A model generated the notes under the pieces. The model searched no databases, was not told the DNA's origin, and worked only from the letters and a program-made list of their open reading frames with translations. A program made the translations under genes and the position numbers. From a virus, in IMG/VR virus record IMGVR_UViG_3300048597_000384, positions 1-54,046 of that record: DNA of 54,046 nucleotides; one strand, written 5' to 3'. How positions within the stretch are numbered: the stretch's first letter is position 1; the number at the start of each line of letters is the position of its first letter. Of this stretch, positions 1,869 through 14,067 are shown in pieces.

Positions 1869-2873
1869 TCACGCCCCGGCCGCCAGGCGCTTGGCCGTGA
1901 CGGCTTCCTCGGGCGTGAGGAAGTCGAGGTAGAGCTCGGTGGTGGCGATGGTGCTGTGGCCCAGGATCTGCTGCAAGGCGTAGATCGAGCCGCCATCGCG
2001 CAAGTAGCGGACCGCGAACAGGTGGCGCAGGTCGTGGGTGCGGAAGGGCACGCCGGCGGCCTTCCTGAGCTGGTGCAGGTAGCTGGCGAGGTTGTGGTAG
2101 CGGTCCGCACCGCCGTCGCGGGTCGGGTGCCAGAAGACCCAGGCGCAGCCCAGCCTGCGGGGTGTGCCGTGAAGTGTGCCGGCGGCCGCCGGCGAGAGCG
2201 GCACGGAACGGGCCCGGCCGGTCTTGCTGCGCTCGACCTGCAGGGCAGCACGGTGCAGGTCGACCTGGCGCCAGCTGAGGCTTGCCGCCTCCTCGAGGCG
2301 CAGGCCGGTCTGCTCGAGCAGGCGCACCAGCGGGCGCAGGCGGGCGGGCAGGGAGCGGTGCAGCTGCTCGACCTGGTTGTCGGTGGGCAGCACGATCGGG
2401 TCGCGGCGCTCGCGGATCAGGCCGCGATCAAAGGCGCGCGCCGGGTTGGCCTGGAGCCACTCCCAGCCGACGGCCGCCTGCAGCACGGCCGAGACGGCGG
2501 TGAGGTCGCGGCGGCGGGTGGCGTTGGTGATACCGGGCCGGCCGGCGATGCGCGCCAGCACCTTGCGGTCGATCTCGTCCAGGTGCAGCGGGGCCAGGAC
2601 GTCGCCGGCGACCTTCAGGCTCGACAGGTAGCGGCGCAGCGTGGCCGGGCGCAGGGCAGCCAAGGCGACCTCGGCATGCCAGCGGACCACGGCTTCCTTC
2701 CAGGTCCGGCGCTCGTCGCCCCAGTCCGCCCTCTGCAGCCGCTCGAGCTCTGCCTTGGCCCGCTCGGCCGCTAGCTTGCGAACAGGCGTGCGTAGGCTGC
2801 GTCGATGCTCGCGACCGGCAATGGTGACGCGCAGCCACCAGACCTTGCCGCGCCGGTAGAGATGTTGCGGCAC
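1869..2873 (-). CDS. int: tyrosine recombinase integrase
   Basis: This 334-residue integrase carries out site-specific recombination between the phage and tRNA-Ser attachment sites. The N-terminus (about 1-50) is a basic arm-type domain, and 55-150 is the core-binding domain. The catalytic domain holds Arg192 (TGLRLEEAASL), the HDLRH motif (His280, Arg283), His306 (LGHS) and Tyr315 (TTELYLDF), so all key residues are present. Translation starts with GTG at 2873. The first 103 bases overlap the excisionase-like gene in another frame. It is the last gene of the leftward early operon and lies 1.1 kb from attL, as expected for the integrase that used this site. Confidence 0.93.
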   Translation of the reverse strand: MPQHLYRRGKVWWLRVTIAGREHRRSLRTPVRKLAAERAKAELERLQRADWGDERRTWKEAVVRWHAEVALAALRPATLRRYLSSLKVAGDVLAPLHLDEIDRKVLARIAGRPGITNATRRRDLTAVSAVLQAAVGWEWLQANPARAFDRGLIRERRDPIVLPTDNQVEQLHRSLPARLRPLVRLLEQTGLRLEEAASLSWRQVDLHRAALQVERSKTGRARSVPLSPAAAGTLHGTPRRLGCAWVFWHPTRDGGADRYHNLASYLHQLRKAAGVPFRTHDLRHLFAVRYLRDGGSIYALQQILGHSTIATTELYLDFLTPEEAVTAKRLAAGA

Positions 2874-3049
2874 CGGGCAGCCCTCCCCTCGGCATCCTCG
2901 ATCCAGCGTAGCACCGCGTCGCGGCGGAATGTCCAGAGCCGGCCCAGCCGGGCAGCGCTCGGGATCTCTCCGCGGGCCGCCATCTGCTGCACGGCGCGCT
3001 CGCCCAGGCCGGTGAGCTCGACCACCTCGGCGACGCGGATACGGGTCAC
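2771..3049 (-). CDS. AlpA/excisionase-like helix-turn-helix protein
   Basis: A protein of about 92 residues whose first 60 form a compact winged-helix domain of the MerR/AlpA excisionase type. The pattern is an ELTGLGERAVQQMAARGEIP helix-turn-helix, then a W-F-R-R-DAVLRWI segment. Such proteins bend DNA at attachment sites or regulate the integrase. I chose GTG 3049 because it overlaps the upstream stop (GTGA) and the domain begins there. Its last 33 codons overlap the integrase start in another frame, and that tail is low-complexity. Position and fold support an Xis role; function is inferred. Confidence 0.65.
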   Translation of the reverse strand: MTRIRVAEVVELTGLGERAVQQMAARGEIPSAARLGRLWTFRRDAVLRWIEDAEGRAARCRNISTGAARSGGCASPLPVASIDAAYARLFAS

Positions 3050-3216
3050 GACCCGCTCATCCTGCCGGCGAAGAAGGCGAGGGCGGCCAGGCCGACGATC
3101 GGGGCCACCGACCAGAAATCGAACCCGAACAGGTTGGCTACCGCCCCGGCAAGGAAGGCGTAGAGCACCGCCGCGACGATCGACATCGCTACGCACAAGT
3201 GGACGAGCTTCTCCAT
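3046..3216 (-). CDS. small membrane protein, 56 residues
   Basis: Two hydrophobic helices (about residues 5-25 and 30-50) separated by a short FGFDFW turn; no known family. ATG 3216 is chosen because the hydrophobic N-terminus starts there. The stop overlaps the start of the excisionase-like gene by four bases, implying translational coupling. It is one of several tiny membrane proteins in this leftward operon; holin-like or exclusion roles are possible but nothing in the sequence decides. Confidence 0.55.
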   Translation of the reverse strand: MEKLVHLCVAMSIVAAVLYAFLAGAVANLFGFDFWSVAPIVGLAALAFFAGRMSGS

Positions 3217-5216: not shown

Positions 5217-5485
5217 GCGTCGATCCCGTGGGCGCGGCGCAGCGCCTGGACGCGGCCGCAGGGCCGGTCGAACCAGGCGGGTGCTTCCATGGGCTCGGGC
5301 GGGCGGCCAGGCCTGCGGTGCCCGATGCCGGCCTCGGCCAGGAGCTCCTGGCAGCGGCCGCGGCCGATCCCGACGGCGGCGGCGATGCGGCCGGCCGACC
5401 ACTTCGGGTTCTCCCGCTTGAGGGCGATGGCCTGGGCGTCGCGGGGATCGTCGGCGGCGTAGCGGCAGGAGGGGCTGGCACTCAC
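5213..5485 (-). CDS. small helix-turn-helix protein, 90 residues
   Basis: The centre of the protein (about residues 14-55) reads as a helix-turn-helix: A-L-K-R-E-N-P-K-W-S-A-G-R-I-A, then VGIGRGRCQELL. The rest is basic with a proline-rich linker and the C-terminal ALRRAHG. Start GTG 5485 overlaps the upstream stop (GTGA). It follows a second DNA-binding gene directly, so the two may regulate the early operon together. No named family. Confidence 0.55.
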   Translation of the reverse strand: MSASPSCRYAADDPRDAQAIALKRENPKWSAGRIAAAVGIGRGRCQELLAEAGIGHRRPGRPPEPMEAPAWFDRPCGRVQALRRAHGIDA

Positions 5486-5907
5486 AGTGCTATCCCCTCG
5501 GGCGGGAAGCCGGGGAGGGGCTCGGGGCGGACGGTGCCGAGGAAGCGGGAGAGGGCGCGCTGCTGTTCGGGCTCGAGCTCGACCAGGTGGCTGAGAAGGC
5601 GCTCGGGGATGGCGCGGGCGTGGTGGCGGGATGTGGTGGGTGCCGCGGCGTCGAGGCACTGCTCGACCAGCTCGACCGGGTCGAGCTGCAGCTCGGCGAT
5701 CGCCAGGATCAGGGTGCCGGCCGACAGGCGGTTGCGGCCGAGCTCGACCTTGGCCCACTGCTGCGGCAGCATGCCCAGGCTGCGGGCGACCTGGCCCTGG
5801 CTGAGGCCCGCCAGCAGCCGCCGCCGGCGCAGGGCGGCACCCAGCCGGGCATTGACGTCGCGCACGAGCTGGCGGAGTGCGGTCCGGTCGTGGGCGGGCT
5901 CACGCAT
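5482..5907 (-). CDS. XRE-family helix-turn-helix regulator
   Basis: Residues about 25-75 form a Cro/CI-type HTH (RRRLLAGLSQGQVARSLG, then a QQWAKVELGRNRLS recognition region) followed by a helical dimer-like tail. At 141 residues with no enzyme domain it is a typical phage repressor-type regulator, distinct from the immunity repressor at 7428-7817. It is transcribed from the leftward promoter, so it would act early after infection or induction; the target sites are not identified. ATG 5907 overlaps the upstream gene by eight bases. Confidence 0.8.
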   Translation of the reverse strand: MREPAHDRTALRQLVRDVNARLGAALRRRRLLAGLSQGQVARSLGMLPQQWAKVELGRNRLSAGTLILAIAELQLDPVELVEQCLDAAAPTTSRHHARAIPERLLSHLVELEPEQQRALSRFLGTVRPEPLPGFPPEGIAL

Positions 5908-6169: not shown

Positions 6170-6528
6170 GAGAAGAACTGCCACCAGGCGGCCGCGCCCA
6201 GGAGGCAGGCCAGGACCAGCCACAGCCCGCTGCCGGCGGCACGCTCGCCGGCGCCGAGCGGGCGGTCGCCGTCTTCCTCCTCGCCCTGGTCGTGCGGGCC
6301 GGCGTAGAGCCCGTGCACCGCGAGGTTCATGACCGCGTCGTCGACGGCGGCCTGGGCGGTGGCGTGGCTGCCGCTGTCGAGCAGCGGGCCGCTGCGGCCG
6401 TGGATGGCGGCGACGTAGCCGGCGCCGGGCCGGTACTCCAGCGACCAGGCCGTGTCGCCCGGCAGCTCGGCGAGCTCGACCCGGTTGCCCGGGCCGGGCC
6501 TCGCCTTGTGGATGTGCGTAACGCTCAT
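6166..6528 (-). CDS. hypothetical early protein with a C-terminal membrane anchor
   Basis: 120 residues. The soluble N-terminal part (about 1-85) has repeated hydrophobic-turn patterns. An acidic EEEDGD patch follows, then a single hydrophobic helix (about residues 100-117) ending in W-W-Q-F-F-S, which suggests a tail-anchored membrane protein. Its start region (VTHIHK and the ribosome binding site) is a near copy of the start region of the preceding gene. The start overlaps the upstream stop (ATGA). Function unknown. Confidence 0.55.
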   Translation of the reverse strand: MSVTHIHKARPGPGNRVELAELPGDTAWSLEYRPGAGYVAAIHGRSGPLLDSGSHATAQAAVDDAVMNLAVHGLYAGPHDQGEEEDGDRPLGAGERAAGSGLWLVLACLLGAAAWWQFFS

Positions 6529-6851
6529 TTCGCGCCCCGCTGGCTGGCAGGGTGAGGTTGGCAATAGATCACCGCGCCGCCCTTGGTGATCACCAGCTCT
6601 TCCCAGTCGGTTTCGAAGCTGTAGGTTTCCGTGAGGTCGCGGAAGCGCACCCGGATCGAGTCCGGCTCGTCCACGAACACCTTTCGACCGTTGAAGCCGC
6701 GCAGAGGCCTCTGCAGGCTGGCGGCATCGACCCGCCCCGGTCCGGGCAATACGGCGACGGCCGTCATCGCGAGCCCTTGCAGGACCAGCCGGCGGCGCGG
6801 CCCCACGGCCTTCGCCGCGGCACTCACCTTGTCGATGTGGGTAACGTCCAT
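6525..6851 (-). CDS. first gene of the leftward operon, possible Tat-exported protein
   Basis: 108 residues. After a short polar N-terminus (VTHIDK) comes an arginine cluster and hydrophobic segment (PRRRLVLQGLAM at about 18-29, then AVAVLPGPG), which resembles a twin-arginine signal peptide. The mature part is small and charged and contains a VRFRDLTETYSF strand pattern. ATG 6851 follows a GGGGGCG ribosome binding site and lies about 24 bases from the predicted start of the leftward promoter. Family unknown; export by Tat is inferred from the motif only. Confidence 0.5.
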   Translation of the reverse strand: MDVTHIDKVSAAAKAVGPRRRLVLQGLAMTAVAVLPGPGRVDAASLQRPLRGFNGRKVFVDEPDSIRVRFRDLTETYSFETDWEELVITKGGAVIYCQPHPASQRGAK

Positions 6852-6881
6852 TTCGCCCCCGTCGGTTGGTGACGGGAACGC

Positions 6882-6909
6882 AGGCTACCTCATTTCAGTG
6901 AGGCGTCAA
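6882..6909 (-). promoter_or_regulatory. leftward early promoter with operator in its spacer
   Basis: On the minus strand TTGACG (6909-6904) and TAGCCT (6887-6882) are 16 bases apart, and the 16-bp operator palindrome 6888-6903 fills the spacer exactly. Repressor bound there would block RNA polymerase directly. It drives the operon 6851 to 1869. Confidence 0.65.
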
Positions 6910-6932
6910 GCAGCAACCGCATTTTTATGAGG
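6888..6932. promoter_or_regulatory. left operators: two 16-bp palindromes
   Basis: CCTCATTTCAGTGAGG at 6888-6903 and CCGCATTTTTATGAGG at 6917-6932. Both have half-sites CC(T/G)CA and TGAGG separated by six bases, as do the three sites at 7819-7895. The second overlaps the 3' end of the rex-position gene. Confidence 0.7.
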
Positions 6933-7410
6933 CACTCGGTGCGGCGGTGTTCTCGCTTGCTTGGGCGATAGCCTCATCGACGGTTAAACCGTTCCGGTAG
7001 TGTAGACCACCATCGACCCAGGGAATGAAGCGCAGGAGATCCTTAAAGCCGTAGCGTCGGCCGCGAAGATAAGCTCGAACCGCAGAATTGAGGGTTCTGT
7101 GTTCAGAGAACACATATGGGTTGCCGGCCTCACGAGAAAAGCGAACGATAGCCCATCCCAGTCGATATGCTGAGCGACTGGATAAATCGTGACCTGTGTA
7201 AGTGTTGATGGCAGCGCAAGAGACCCAAATGCCATGCTTCGGGTCTCTTGCAGCAAGATAGGTTATCTGAACCTTAGGCCACTCTTGCCCGAAGGATGCC
7301 AAAATCTGTGTCCGAGCTAAGCTCTCATTCTCGGCGCAGATTTCCCCAGTACTGCTTGGGCGATCGCGGATCTTTCCTTCGCCACTGTCAACGACGAACA
7401 GGAAGTCCAT
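6925..7410 (-). CDS. rex-position lysogenic gene of unknown function
   Basis: 161 residues, no recognised family. It starts with a MDFLFVVDSGEG strand, has a central region rich in aromatic residues (ITYLAARDPKHGIWVSC), and ends in a helical tail; no signal peptide or membrane helix is visible. It lies 17 bases downstream of the repressor on the same strand, between the left and right operators. Lambda rexA/rexB occupy this place and are expressed with the repressor in lysogens. The DNA is more AT-rich than its neighbours, as in many recently gained phage cargo genes. A role in excluding other phages is a strong candidate but is inferred from position. Confidence 0.65.
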   Translation of the reverse strand: MDFLFVVDSGEGKIRDRPSSTGEICAENESLARTQILASFGQEWPKVQITYLAARDPKHGIWVSCAAINTYTGHDLSSRSAYRLGWAIVRFSREAGNPYVFSEHRTLNSAVRAYLRGRRYGFKDLLRFIPWVDGGLHYRNGLTVDEAIAQASENTAAPSAS

Positions 7411-7427
7411 GCGATCGCCTCGGCATT

Positions 7428-7817
7428 CTATCGAGTAATCGCTCTATGTCTCGGCGCAGTCAGTGCTTGCAGTAGCTCATTGTTCTGCTGCAGTAGCGCG
7501 CGTTGGTCATTCATCAACGCGCGGATGTCCTGTAGAACGGAAAGAACTATCTGCAGGTCATTGCTCGCGCGGGGCGTCGCATTGTCGCCGGTACCGGGGG
7601 ACCTTTCGTCTCCATCCTGGAGAAGCTCGGGGATGGAAATGCCTTCCGCGTCCGCCAGCTTTTCTAGGGTGCGGGCCGTGATCGAGCGGTTGGGTTCGTT
7701 GAGGAAGGTCGCAAGGGTGTTCTCGGACAAGCCAGCACGGGCCGCCCATGGATACGGCTTCAGGTCCTTGCGCTTCATGTAGGCCCTGAGCCGGGTGCGA
7801 ATGAACTCCGGTGTCAT
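7428..7817 (-). CDS. immunity repressor (XRE/CI-like, no peptidase domain)
   Basis: 129 residues. The N-terminal domain (about 5-62) is a Cro/CI helix-turn-helix with PWAARAGLSENTLATFLN as the HTH. The C-terminal half (about 85-120) is a glutamine- and leucine-rich coiled coil, probably the dimerisation part. The S24 autoprotease domain of lambda-type repressors is missing, so induction by RecA-driven self-cleavage is not expected. ATG 7817 is two bases from the operator at 7819-7834, which covers the region where its ribosome binding site should be, pointing to autoregulation. It shares the site set with the Cro-like gene at 7908. Confidence 0.8.
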   Translation of the reverse strand: MTPEFIRTRLRAYMKRKDLKPYPWAARAGLSENTLATFLNEPNRSITARTLEKLADAEGISIPELLQDGDERSPGTGDNATPRASNDLQIVLSVLQDIRALMNDQRALLQQNNELLQALTAPRHRAITR

Positions 7818-7818
7818 G

Positions 7819-7895
7819 CCGCATTTTTGTGAGCTGGCATCGATGCCAGCAACCTCATCGTTGTGAGCCCCATTGCAAACCTCAAAAGAATGAGG
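7819..7895. promoter_or_regulatory. right operators: three 16-bp palindromes
   Basis: CCGCATTTTTGTGAGC (7819-7834), CCTCATCGTTGTGAGC (7853-7868) and CCTCAAAAGAATGAGG (7880-7895) share CC(T/G)CA-N6-TGAG(G/C) with the left operators. Three sites between the divergent repressor and Cro-like genes repeat the layout of lambda OR1-OR3. Confidence 0.75.
7833..7850. promoter_or_regulatory. 18-bp perfect palindrome between two operators
   Basis: GCTGGCATCGATGCCAGC is its own reverse complement and does not match the operator consensus. It lies between the operators at 7819 and 7853, so a second regulator may bind here. Confidence 0.5.
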
Positions 7896-7901
7896 TAAGC
7901 G
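7873..7901 (+). promoter_or_regulatory. rightward early promoter with operator in its spacer
   Basis: TTGCAA (7873-7878) and TAAGCG (7896-7901) are 17 bases apart, and the operator 7880-7895 fills the spacer. Transcription would begin close to the ATG at 7908, leaving almost no leader. Confidence 0.55.
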
Positions 7902-7907
7902 GGCTCG

Positions 7908-8141
7908 ATGAGCGTGAACGCCACCCTCCAGCACATCCGTGGGCGCCTGCTGAGCAGCGGCCTGCCGCTCCGGCGCGTCGCACAGGAAGCCGAACTGGCC
8001 GAGAACACCGTGGCGAAGGTTGCCAGGGCCAGCCCCAGGGTCACCGTCGACACGCTGCGCCGTATCGAGCGCGTTCTGGATCGTCTCGCATCCGAGCCCG
8101 CTGAGAGCGCCCCCAGCGCGAGCAGCGACAGTGTCCAATAG
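7908..8141 (+). CDS. Cro-like helix-turn-helix regulator
   Basis: 77 residues, with the HTH at about 19-52 (RRVAQEAELAENTVAKVARA) and a serine-rich tail. It is transcribed rightward, divergently from the repressor, as the first gene after the right operators, which is the Cro position. No clear ribosome binding site precedes ATG 7908, and the -10 box ends only six bases upstream, so the message may be leaderless. It probably binds the same operators to favour lytic growth; this is inferred from position and fold. Confidence 0.8.
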   Translation: MSVNATLQHIRGRLLSSGLPLRRVAQEAELAENTVAKVARASPRVTVDTLRRIERVLDRLASEPAESAPSASSDSVQ

Positions 8142-8292
8142 CTTCCCCCGCGCGTTGCGCCGTGCTGGCCGATCGTGTGCTGTGGGGAGAGGCGTCGTTG
8201 CCACGACACGTAGCTTGGGCTCGGCCGTTCGGCCAGCCTTGCCGTCGCCCAATCCCGGCGAAGTGACGGGAAAGGCCGCTCGCTGATGCAGC

Positions 8293-8535
8293 ATGGTCTC
8301 ACCAGCGGCCGCCGCAGCGTTGTCGATCGCCAACCGTGGAAATCTACGGTTCTTCGTGCGCACGATTGCCTCCGCCTTATGGTTGTTCTGTCGCACGCCT
8401 TGGGCTGTGAAATCGTTTTTCTCGTTCTACTCCGCGGCTACAGCCTGCCGCGCACCTCGTGCGCCCGGCAAGTCGGTTCATGTGGCGGCGACGTGCTACC
8501 AAAAGGTTATCCATTCACTCCGGAGGGGTGCGTGA
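8293..8535 (+). CDS. doubtful small protein, 80 residues
   Basis: The frame starts at ATG 8293 with no convincing ribosome binding site. It encodes an alanine-rich N-terminus, a hydrophobic, phenylalanine-rich centre (FVRTIASALWLF, then KSFFSFYSAAT) and a basic C-terminus. A lambda cII-like regulator would normally be sought at this position, but no helix-turn-helix is visible. It may be a small membrane protein or no gene at all. Confidence 0.22.
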   Translation: MVSPAAAAALSIANRGNLRFFVRTIASALWLFCRTPWAVKSFFSFYSAATACRAPRAPGKSVHVAATCYQKVIHSLRRGA

Positions 8536-8555
8536 CACCGCCACTCTAGGAGCGG

Positions 8556-8608
8556 GGCCGGGGCGGCGTCGCGGGGGATCGGACCTGCCCGCGAACGCCG
8601 CCCCGGCC
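8556..8608 (+). terminator. 20-bp inverted repeat (hairpin) before the main rightward operon
   Basis: The arms 8556-8575 and 8588-8608 pair over 20 positions with one bulged base and a 12-base loop. There is no T run after it, so a classical terminator is doubtful. It may be an attenuator or antitermination element. Confidence 0.4.
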
Positions 8609-8680
8609 GGCTGCATCTGAACCGGGCCAGCAAGGCCCGACGGCAACGGGCGCCGACAGCCCGGGGAACTGGAGCGGTCC

Positions 8681-9115
8681 ATGGATGGCGGACTCTGCGC
8701 TGTGACCCAACCTGGGGTAGCGCACCACAGCATCGTGCTCCCGGTGAGCGATACCGCCGGGCCGGTAGCCGGCGATCCGCTGCAGCCGCTGCAGCTGGCT
8801 GCCACAGCCGGGCGCACGGCGCTCGACCGGGTCGCTGCGGCGATCGCCGTCGCCTTCGGGCCGCGGGCGCGCCTCCCGGCGAACTGGGCCCTTGCCCTGG
8901 TGCGGCTCGAGGCCTTGGGCCGGCCGGTCACGGTCGGCGAGTTCCAGGACCTCTGCCTGCTCGACAGCAATGCGAGCTACGCGATCGGCCGGTTGGTCCA
9001 GGCGGGGCAGTTGCGGCGCGAGCCCGTGCCGGACGACCGGCGGCTGGTGCAGGTCGCTCTCACGCCCTCGGCGGCCGCCTGGCTCGCAGCCCTACGCGCG
9101 GCACTGGGGCCATGA
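8681..9115 (+). CDS. MarR-type winged-helix regulator
   Basis: 144 residues. The C-terminal two thirds fit a MarR winged helix: a VTVGEFQDLCLLDSNASYAI helix-turn-helix, the recognition part GRLVQAGQLRREP, then a DDRR wing and a V-A-L-TPSA strand. The N-terminal 45 residues are unstructured, so a later start is possible. As the first firm gene after Cro in the rightward operon it may control early-to-late switching, but no target is known. Its stop overlaps the next start (ATGA). Confidence 0.75.
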   Translation: MDGGLCAVTQPGVAHHSIVLPVSDTAGPVAGDPLQPLQLAATAGRTALDRVAAAIAVAFGPRARLPANWALALVRLEALGRPVTVGEFQDLCLLDSNASYAIGRLVQAGQLRREPVPDDRRLVQVALTPSAAAWLAALRAALGP

Positions 9116-12689: not shown

Positions 12690-12904
12690 TGCCGCCGACC
12701 AGCCCGCTGCGGCGCGCCTGCGCCCAGCTCGCCTATCTCGCCGAGACGCTGAGCCCGACCTGGCCCGAGACGCCGGCGCAGCGGCGGGCCTGGCTAGAGG
12801 AGATGAAAAAGCGCCTGGCCGAGGTCGAGGCGGCGTGCCCGGAGGCGTTCGCCGAGACGGTGGACCCGACCGGTACGGACCCGGCACCGGTGGAGGAAGG
12901 CTGA
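12689..12904 (+). CDS. hypothetical protein, 71 residues
   Basis: Mostly one long helix: AQRRAWLEEMKKRLAEVEAA forms a clear amphipathic stretch at about 34-53, followed by an acidic tail. The start overlaps the o-spanin stop (TGATG) and the stop overlaps the sliding clamp start (TGATG). It may be a small partner of the clamp or a spacer gene; no family is recognised. Confidence 0.5.
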   Translation: MPPTSPLRRACAQLAYLAETLSPTWPETPAQRRAWLEEMKKRLAEVEAACPEAFAETVDPTGTDPAPVEEG

Positions 12905-14067
12905 TGGCGGCGCGCAAGCTGAAGCCCGCCGCGGGCGGGGTGCCCACGGCCACCGTGGTCAAGGAAGACCTGGCCGCGGCCCTGGCCCTGCCGCGCTCGG
13001 TGGTGGCCAAGCGCAGCACGATCCCGATCCTGGCCTGCCTGCTGCTGCGGCAGAGCCGTGGCGAGCTGCATGTGGTCGGGACCGACATGGACATCGGGGT
13101 GGCCACACGCTGCCCCCTGCGGGACCATGACTGGCCGGACGGCGGGGCCGGGGTGGCGGTCGACGCCGACCTCCTGGCCGCCGTGGTGGCGGCCGCACCC
13201 AAGGGCGGCGAGATCAGGCTGGCGTCGGGGCCGAGCGGGCTCCTGGTCAGCCACGCGCTCGAGCGGGCGCGCCTGCCGGTGCTCCAGGGCGACGAATTCC
13301 CCTCGCTGAAGGAGCCGGACGGTACGGCGGTCGAGATCGCGGCCGAGGGCGGCAAGGTGGCCGCGGCCCTGGCGCGCGTGTCGGCCGCGATCAGCCGCGA
13401 GGAGACGCGCTACTACCTGAACGGCGTGTTCGTCGAGGTCCAGCGGCACCATGTCGAGCTGACCGCCACCGACGGCCACCGGCTGCACCACACGTGGTTG
13501 GAACCGGACGGGATCGAGGGCGAGGCGCCGGGCGTCATCCTGCCGCGGCGCCTGGTCGAGCTCCTGGCCGGGATCGAGGGCGAGGTCACGCTGCGGATCG
13601 GGGCGACGGGCGTCTCGGTGGCCGGCGGCTTCGGGCGGATCACCAGCCGGGTGATCGACGGGAGCTTCCCCGAGTGGCGCCGGATCGTCCCGCCGCCCTC
13701 GTCGGACGGGCTCGAGCTGTCGGGCGGCGACGTCGAGGCCGCCGTCAAGCGGCTGCGCGGCTTCGGCGACGGGGCGCTCGGCCTGTGGCTGGAAAAGGAG
13801 CGGCTGAGCCTCCAGGCCGCGACCGAGGAAGCGGCGGCGATCGCGGAGACCAGCATCGCCGGGGTGGCGCGCGGGGCGGCGGAGCCGCTGCAGACCGGCG
13901 TCAAGGGCCGCTACCTCGCCGATGCCGCCGCCGTCGCCGGTGGCGGGCGCATGGTGGTGAGCTGGTCGACCTCCAGTGCGGCCATGCGGGTCGCCTTCGC
14001 GGACCGGCCCGACGACGTCGTGGTGCTGATGCCCATGCGCATGGGTGCGTGGCGCGAGGTGGAATGA
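12904..14067 (+). CDS. dnaN: DNA polymerase III beta sliding clamp homologue (phage-encoded DnaN)
   Basis: 387 residues, about the length of bacterial beta (366 in E. coli). The sequence shows the clamp repeats: a VKEDLAAALALPRSVVAKRSTIPIL start typical of the first domain, LTATDGHRLHHTW in the second, and a VVLMPMRM end typical of the C-terminal clamp strand. The clamp tethers DNA polymerase to DNA. A phage copy would let viral DNA use, or compete for, the host replisome. It lies next to a VirE-type ATPase and the iteron array, which makes a replication module likely. The last residues are polar (GAWREVE). Confidence 0.9.
   Translation: MAARKLKPAAGGVPTATVVKEDLAAALALPRSVVAKRSTIPILACLLLRQSRGELHVVGTDMDIGVATRCPLRDHDWPDGGAGVAVDADLLAAVVAAAPKGGEIRLASGPSGLLVSHALERARLPVLQGDEFPSLKEPDGTAVEIAAEGGKVAAALARVSAAISREETRYYLNGVFVEVQRHHVELTATDGHRLHHTWLEPDGIEGEAPGVILPRRLVELLAGIEGEVTLRIGATGVSVAGGFGRITSRVIDGSFPEWRRIVPPPSSDGLELSGGDVEAAVKRLRGFGDGALGLWLEKERLSLQAATEEAAAIAETSIAGVARGAAEPLQTGVKGRYLADAAAVAGGGRMVVSWSTSSAAMRVAFADRPDDVVVLMPMRMGAWREVE

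What the first reader, a model, noticed from the sequence alone, without database searches (positions are those of the whole stretch)
6888..7895. Five 16-bp operator palindromes, two filling promoter spacers exactly
CC(T/G)CA-N6-TGAG(G/C) sites occur twice upstream of the leftward operon and three times between repressor and Cro-like genes. At 6888 and 7880 the palindrome fills the -35/-10 spacer, so binding blocks the promoter directly. This rebuilds the lambda OL/OR logic with a new motif.
Basis: partly seen in the sequence, partly recalled or inferred. Interest (0 to 1): 0.75.

Follow-up and report, generated by a model that had tools for sequence, protein, structure and literature searches.

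The report
Ordinary phage immunity-switch operators, new motif
Five copies of a 16-letter DNA palindrome mark where a temperate phage's repressor most likely binds to keep the virus dormant; this is the same three-plus-two layout known from phages N15 and phiKO2, here with a new recognition sequence and a small repressor without close known relatives.

Summary
The five 16-bp sites are real. They match CC(T/G)CA-N6-TGAG(G/C) exactly at 6888, 6917, 7819, 7853 and 7880. Each one, when left out, is the best remaining match in the 54-kb contig to a matrix trained on the other four. A blind palindrome search of the two control regions picks this motif with a score of 11, against at most 6 in 2,000 simulations. 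Only one other exact match exists in the contig. Three sites lie between an HTH_26 repressor gene (129 codons) and a Cro-like gene; two lie before the leftward operon that ends in xis-int. That is the lambda gene order.

The promoter claim holds only in part: TTGACG-16-TAGCCT around 6888 is the best promoter there; TTGCAA-17-TAAGCG around 7880 is weak and no better than chance.

The most likely reading is a temperate-phage immunity switch in which a repressor dimer occupies five operators. Whether Cro shares them is untested, and phiKO2 warns against assuming it. Five 16-bp operators arranged 3 + 2 are known from N15 and phiKO2, so this is a new member of a known kind. No close relative of the repressor was found, so there is no comparative footprint and no binding evidence.

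The parts
6888..6903 (.). operator-like site OL1 (name by analogy): CCTCATTTCAGTGAGG, perfect palindrome, inside the spacer of the leftward promoter
   Evidence: exact match, 24.1 bits, leave-one-out rank 1
6882..6909 (-). candidate leftward promoter PL: TTGACG (6909-6904), 16-bp spacer that is site 6888, TAGCCT (6887-6882)
   Evidence: best promoter match in 6845-6975, 7.5 bits, 4% of shuffles as good
6917..6932 (.). operator-like site OL2: CCGCATTTTTATGAGG, centre 29 bp from OL1, upstream of the PL -35; overlaps the 3' end of ORF 6925-7410
   Evidence: exact match, 24.9 bits, leave-one-out rank 1
6925..7410 (-). 161-codon ORF of unknown function, in the place of lambda rexAB between repressor and OL
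   Evidence: ORF; no Pfam, PHROG, NCBIfam or PADLOC match; promoter-like GAGACA-16-TAGAAT at 7452-7425 ahead of it
7428..7817 (-). 129-codon repressor: HTH_26 (Cro/C1-type) domain, linker, long C-terminal helix 83-120; no peptidase domain matched
   Evidence: PF13443 E 1.6e-8, PHROG transcriptional repressor, AlphaFold2 model pLDDT 77.5, fold matches incl. P22 c2 and TP901-1 CI
7819..7834 (.). operator-like site OR3: CCGCATTTTTGTGAGC, directly before the repressor start codon
   Evidence: exact match, 21.2 bits, leave-one-out rank 1
7833..7850 (.). separate perfect 18-bp palindrome GCTGGCATCGATGCCAGC between OR3 and OR2, a different sequence; possible second binding site or leader hairpin
   Evidence: one of only two perfect 18-bp palindromes in the window; no second copy; RNA fold -12.1 kcal/mol
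7853..7868 (.). operator-like site OR2: CCTCATCGTTGTGAGC
   Evidence: exact match, 19.6 bits, leave-one-out rank 1
7880..7895 (.). operator-like site OR1: CCTCAAAAGAATGAGG, perfect palindrome, 12 bp before the cro-like start codon
   Evidence: exact match, 25.0 bits, leave-one-out rank 1
   Evidence: second hexamer 2 of 6; -35 4.1 bits, -10 -1.5 bits; best match of the region no better than shuffles
7908..8141 (+). 77-codon Cro-like gene, weak HTH match, recognition helix with the same ENT.A as the repressor
   Evidence: PHROG_37057 transcriptional regulator E 2e-4, HTH_3 E 0.0055 below cut-off, alignment
6525..6851 (-). first gene of the leftward operon (108 codons, unknown)
   Evidence: ORF; no family match
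5482..5907 (-). second HTH regulator in the leftward operon (HTH_31/HTH_3)
   Evidence: PF13560 E 1e-8
2771..3196 (-). excisionase-like HTH_17 ORF (true start probably internal) near the end of the leftward operon
   Evidence: PHROG excisionase 1.9e-7, PF12728 6.9e-11
1869..2873 (-). tyrosine integrase, at the far end of the leftward arm
   Evidence: PF00589 2.5e-24, PHROG integrase

Best explanation
The five palindromes are the operators of a temperate-phage immunity switch. The 129-residue repressor (7428-7817), made from a promoter in the OR region, binds as a dimer: its HTH reads CC(T/G)CA half-sites and its long C-terminal helix probably pairs two subunits. Occupying 6888 (with 6917) shuts the leftward early operon that leads to xis and int. 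Occupying 7880 (with 7853) shuts the rightward lytic operon that starts with the Cro-like gene, and 7819, next to the repressor start, gives autoregulation. The Cro-like protein probably acts on some of the same sites to turn the repressor off. Shown: the sites, their statistics, the gene order, the HTH families and the left promoter match. Inferred: binding, dimerisation, which protein binds which site, autoregulation, and the right promoter.
For: Five exact sites confined to the two control regions, leave-one-out rank 1 each. Blind search of those regions returns this motif, 0 of 2,000 simulations as good. Lambda gene order: int, xis, leftward operon, OL, ORF at the rex position, repressor, OR, Cro-like, then rightward genes with a VapE-type helicase/primase and a lambda-type portal. 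Repressor HTH domain by family and by fold, incl. P22 c2 and TP901-1 CI. Repressor and Cro-like protein share ENT.A at the start of the recognition helix, which fits common operators. Left promoter with the site exactly in its spacer. The deviating letters in the imperfect sites break pairing instead of compensating, which favours a DNA-bound dimer over an RNA hairpin.
Against: No binding data. No close relative of the repressor was found in the viral, genome, phage or plasmid collections searched, so the sites cannot be checked by conservation. The right promoter is weak and no repressor promoter stands out from shuffles. The Cro-like protein matches HTH families only weakly and its single-sequence model matches no HTH fold. 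Centre spacings of 29, 34 and 27 bp are 2.8, 3.2 and 2.6 turns, so neighbouring sites do not all lie on one face of the helix.
Confidence: 0.82

Rival explanations
1. Split operators: only the repressor binds the five CC(T/G)CA sites, while the Cro-like protein binds one site only, either OR3 or the separate 18-bp palindrome at 7833-7850, and only turns the repressor off. (A variant of the best explanation; its confidence overlaps with it.)
For: In phiKO2 the repressor binds all five sites and Cro only OR3 (PMC4997575). A perfect 18-bp palindrome of another sequence lies between OR3 and OR2.
Against: Both proteins share ENT.A at the recognition helix. The 18-bp palindrome occurs once, and one other perfect palindrome of that length occurs elsewhere in the window.
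Confidence: 0.35
2. The sites are RNA hairpins, boxB-like antitermination sites or attenuators transcribed in the early leaders.
For: The two perfect sites fold as 6-bp stem-loops at -7.4 and -7.5 kcal/mol. Sites lie near early promoters. The arm and loop sizes resemble lambda boxB (general knowledge, not tested).
Against: The three imperfect sites lose pairs without compensation and 7819 hardly folds. Loops are not conserved. 6888 lies in a promoter spacer and 6917 upstream of it, so neither would be in the leftward transcript. No Rfam match.
Confidence: 0.05
3. The sites bind a host regulator or another phage regulator, such as the HTH_31 protein of the leftward operon, and not the repressor.
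For: A second HTH protein is encoded at 5482-5907.
Against: The sites sit at the two classical operator positions around the repressor gene and at no other well-scoring place in the contig.
Confidence: 0.08
4. Chance cluster of a degenerate motif.
For: With one mismatch allowed the window count is at chance (30 against 25); a loose whole-window search does not single the motif out.
Against: Leave-one-out ranks and the control-region simulations.
Confidence: 0.03

Closest known systems
N15 / phiKO2 immB switch (CB, Cro)
   Same: Five 16-bp operators, three between repressor and cro and two at a second leftward control region; repressor without self-cleavage residues (PMC4997575)
   Different: Their motif is TA-N10-TA; OL there controls repA, here an operon leading to xis-int; no sequence kinship shown; there Cro binds only OR3
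Phage 933W repressor switch
   Same: Five natural repressor sites spread over OR and OL (PMC3317979)
   Different: 15-bp consensus site of another sequence
Lambda CI/Cro, OL/OR
   Same: Gene order (leftward operon, OL, rex position, repressor, OR, cro), operators overlapping early promoters
   Different: Lambda has six 17-bp operators (PMC4997575); here five of 16 bp, another motif, a much smaller repressor without a recognised peptidase domain, and control regions about 0.95 kb apart
Gifsy-type small repressors (GfoR/GtgR)
   Same: Repressors in the 150-aa range, too small for self-cleavage, inactivated by antirepressors in the Gifsy phages (PMC3121763)
   Different: No homology tested; no antirepressor identified here

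Membership tests
Lambda-type (CI/Cro, OL/OR) immunity switch, as an organisation | repressor gene divergent from a small cro-like gene | tested here: met
   ORFs 7428-7817 (-) and 7908-8141 (+) with HTH matches, the second one weak
Lambda-type (CI/Cro, OL/OR) immunity switch, as an organisation | repeated palindromic sites in both the repressor/cro interval and ahead of a leftward operon | tested here: met
Lambda-type (CI/Cro, OL/OR) immunity switch, as an organisation | leftward genes reaching xis and int | tested here: met
   transcription through the whole arm not shown
Lambda-type (CI/Cro, OL/OR) immunity switch, as an organisation | sites overlap the early promoters | tested here: inconclusive
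   left yes, right weak
Lambda-type (CI/Cro, OL/OR) immunity switch, as an organisation | both repressor and Cro bind the sites | not testable with these tools
   only the shared ENT.A
Lambda CI-like self-cleaving repressor | C-terminal S24/LexA-type peptidase domain | tested here: not met
   no peptidase match in Pfam, PHROGs or NCBIfam; the 129-residue protein ends in one long helix in the model
HTH_26 Cro/C1-type DNA-binding domain (Pfam PF13443) | score above Pfam's curated cut-off | tested here: met
   repressor 35.1 bits against cut-off 22
N15/phiKO2 operator family | TA-N10-TA 16-bp motif | tested here: not met
   sites are CC(T/G)CA-N6-TGAG(G/C); motif of N15 and phiKO2 from PMC4997575

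The most novel reading that the evidence does not exclude
Two proteins divide the control region: the repressor uses the five CC(T/G)CA sites and the Cro-like protein uses the separate 18-bp palindrome GCTGGCATCGATGCCAGC between OR3 and OR2, giving a switch in which the two antagonists do not compete for the same sites.
Probability: 0.1. Interest if true: 0.45.

Novelty: new member of a known kind. Interest (0 to 1): 0.22.

Why it matters
It adds a clear, testable operator set with a new half-site to the list of lambda-like switches, attached to a small repressor with no close relative in the collections searched. The 3 + 2 layout of 16-bp sites seen in N15 and phiKO2 thus turns up with a different motif and repressor. 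It would help to predict repressor specificity and immunity groups, but it does not change the picture of how such switches work.

Tried and rejected
Relatives of the repressor: none in viral contigs, genome contigs, plasmids, or phages at E 1e-5, only weak hits at E up to 1; whole-genome searches in samples of a class, a phylum and an order found only distant HTH matches, best 36% over about 100 residues; of the seven such loci from the class search, six lack the motif and one (L080) has a single isolated match. The 12 virus records related by primase or portal gave no relative of the repressor. Cro-like relative: one, in a Sneathiella prophage, whose fetched region has no copy of the motif. 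A pattern scan of viral contigs for paired sites gave 53 contigs, but in the largest recognisable group (L013, L017, L038, L052, L055 and kin) the tandem CCTCAC..GTGAGG palindromes lie inside a gene of about 210 codons that looks like a replication initiator; they look like origin iterons, not operators. None of the loci encodes a repressor like this one. The structure search with the Cro-like model gave no HTH match, which at that model quality says little. LexA-type boxes: one GTTC-N7-GTTC inside the cro-like gene, about as expected by chance. Whole host genome: not held; the window is a virus record, so the motif could not be counted in the host.

Full report
What was checked. With exact matching there is one further match, 22-37 on the minus strand, whose centre is G+C-rich; it is not among the twenty best places by matrix score.

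Is it more than chance? Four tests. (a) Counting matches with one mismatch allowed is at chance (30 against 25 expected). (b) A blind search of the whole window for clusters of any loosely matched 5-bp half-site does not single this motif out. (c) Where operators are expected, in 6852-6936 and 7818-7907, a blind search over all half-sites and gaps returns CCTCA-N6-TGAGG with score 11, and 2,000 simulated pairs of regions reach at most 6. (d) A matrix from the ten half-sites scores the five at 19.6-25.0 bits and the next place in the window at 13.3, and each site left out in turn ranks first. So the sites are real, and the evidence comes from exactness and place, not from sheer number. The matrix also shows A or G just outside the half-site and mostly T or C just inside it.

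Surroundings. Leftward from OL run small ORFs, a second HTH protein (5482-5907), a DUF4326 protein, an excisionase-like HTH_17 protein and a tyrosine integrase. Between OL and OR lie an ORF of unknown function in the place of lambda's rex genes and the repressor. Rightward of OR come the Cro-like gene, a MarR-like protein, a sliding-clamp homologue, a VapE-domain helicase/primase and a lambda-type portal. This is the gene order of a lambda-like temperate phage.

The proteins. The repressor has an HTH_26 domain well above Pfam's cut-off, a five-helix DNA-binding domain and a long C-terminal helix in the model, and fold matches to many HTH proteins including P22 c2 and TP901-1 CI at Z near 8. 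No peptidase domain was matched, so SOS induction by self-cleavage as in lambda is unlikely; small repressors of this kind in Gifsy phages are released by antirepressors (PMC3121763). None was identified here. The Cro-like protein has weak HTH matches only. Aligned, both proteins have ENT.A at the start of the recognition helix, which fits shared operators but is short.

Promoters. TTGACG-16-TAGCCT on the minus strand, with site 6888 exactly as its spacer, is clearly the best match in its region. Thus one of the two 'exact spacer' claims is supported. If the right promoter is real, transcription would begin about at the Cro-like start codon; this is inference.

DNA site or RNA hairpin? The two perfect sites would fold as RNA, but the three others lose pairs without compensation, one hardly folds at all, and the loops are not conserved. 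Site 6888 lies between the promoter elements and 6917 upstream of them. A dimeric DNA-binding protein explains this better.

Comparison. N15 and phiKO2 have five 16-bp operators, three between repressor and cro and two at OL (PMC4997575); 933W has five natural repressor sites in its two operator regions (PMC3317979). The layout is therefore known; the half-site CC(T/G)CA and the repressor are different.

Limits. No close relative of the repressor was found in any collection searched, and the host genome is not held, so neither conservation of the sites nor their rarity in the host could be tested. All statements on binding are inference.

Noticed in passing
7833-7850: Perfect 18-bp palindrome GCTGGCATCGATGCCAGC between two of the operators, of another sequence; possible second regulator site or leader hairpin.
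   Followed up: partly
12904-14064: The phage encodes a DNA polymerase III beta (sliding clamp) homologue, PF00712/PF02767, PHROG polymerase processivity factor.
   Followed up: no
5482-5907: A second HTH regulator (HTH_31) in the leftward operon, perhaps a further control gene.
   Followed up: no
8681-9115: MarR-like winged-helix protein early in the rightward arm, below Pfam's cut-off.
   Followed up: no
6925-7410: 161-codon ORF of unknown function at the rex position, lower G+C (54%) than the window (71%), with a promoter-like sequence in the end of the repressor gene.
   Followed up: partly
L013:8558-8596; L017:3187-3225; L038:3852-3890; L052:5521-5559; L055:6315-6353: In a group of viral contigs tandem CCTCAC-type palindromes 23 bp apart lie within a gene of about 210 codons that looks like a replication initiator, so probably lambda-O-like origin iterons inside the gene.
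   Followed up: partly
L091:1234-1977: An ORF with two tandem stretches that both match the repressor's HTH domain.
   Followed up: no
8142-8680: A stretch of about 540 bp after the Cro-like gene without a recognised gene; one ORF of 80 codons (8293-8535) has no family match.
   Followed up: partly
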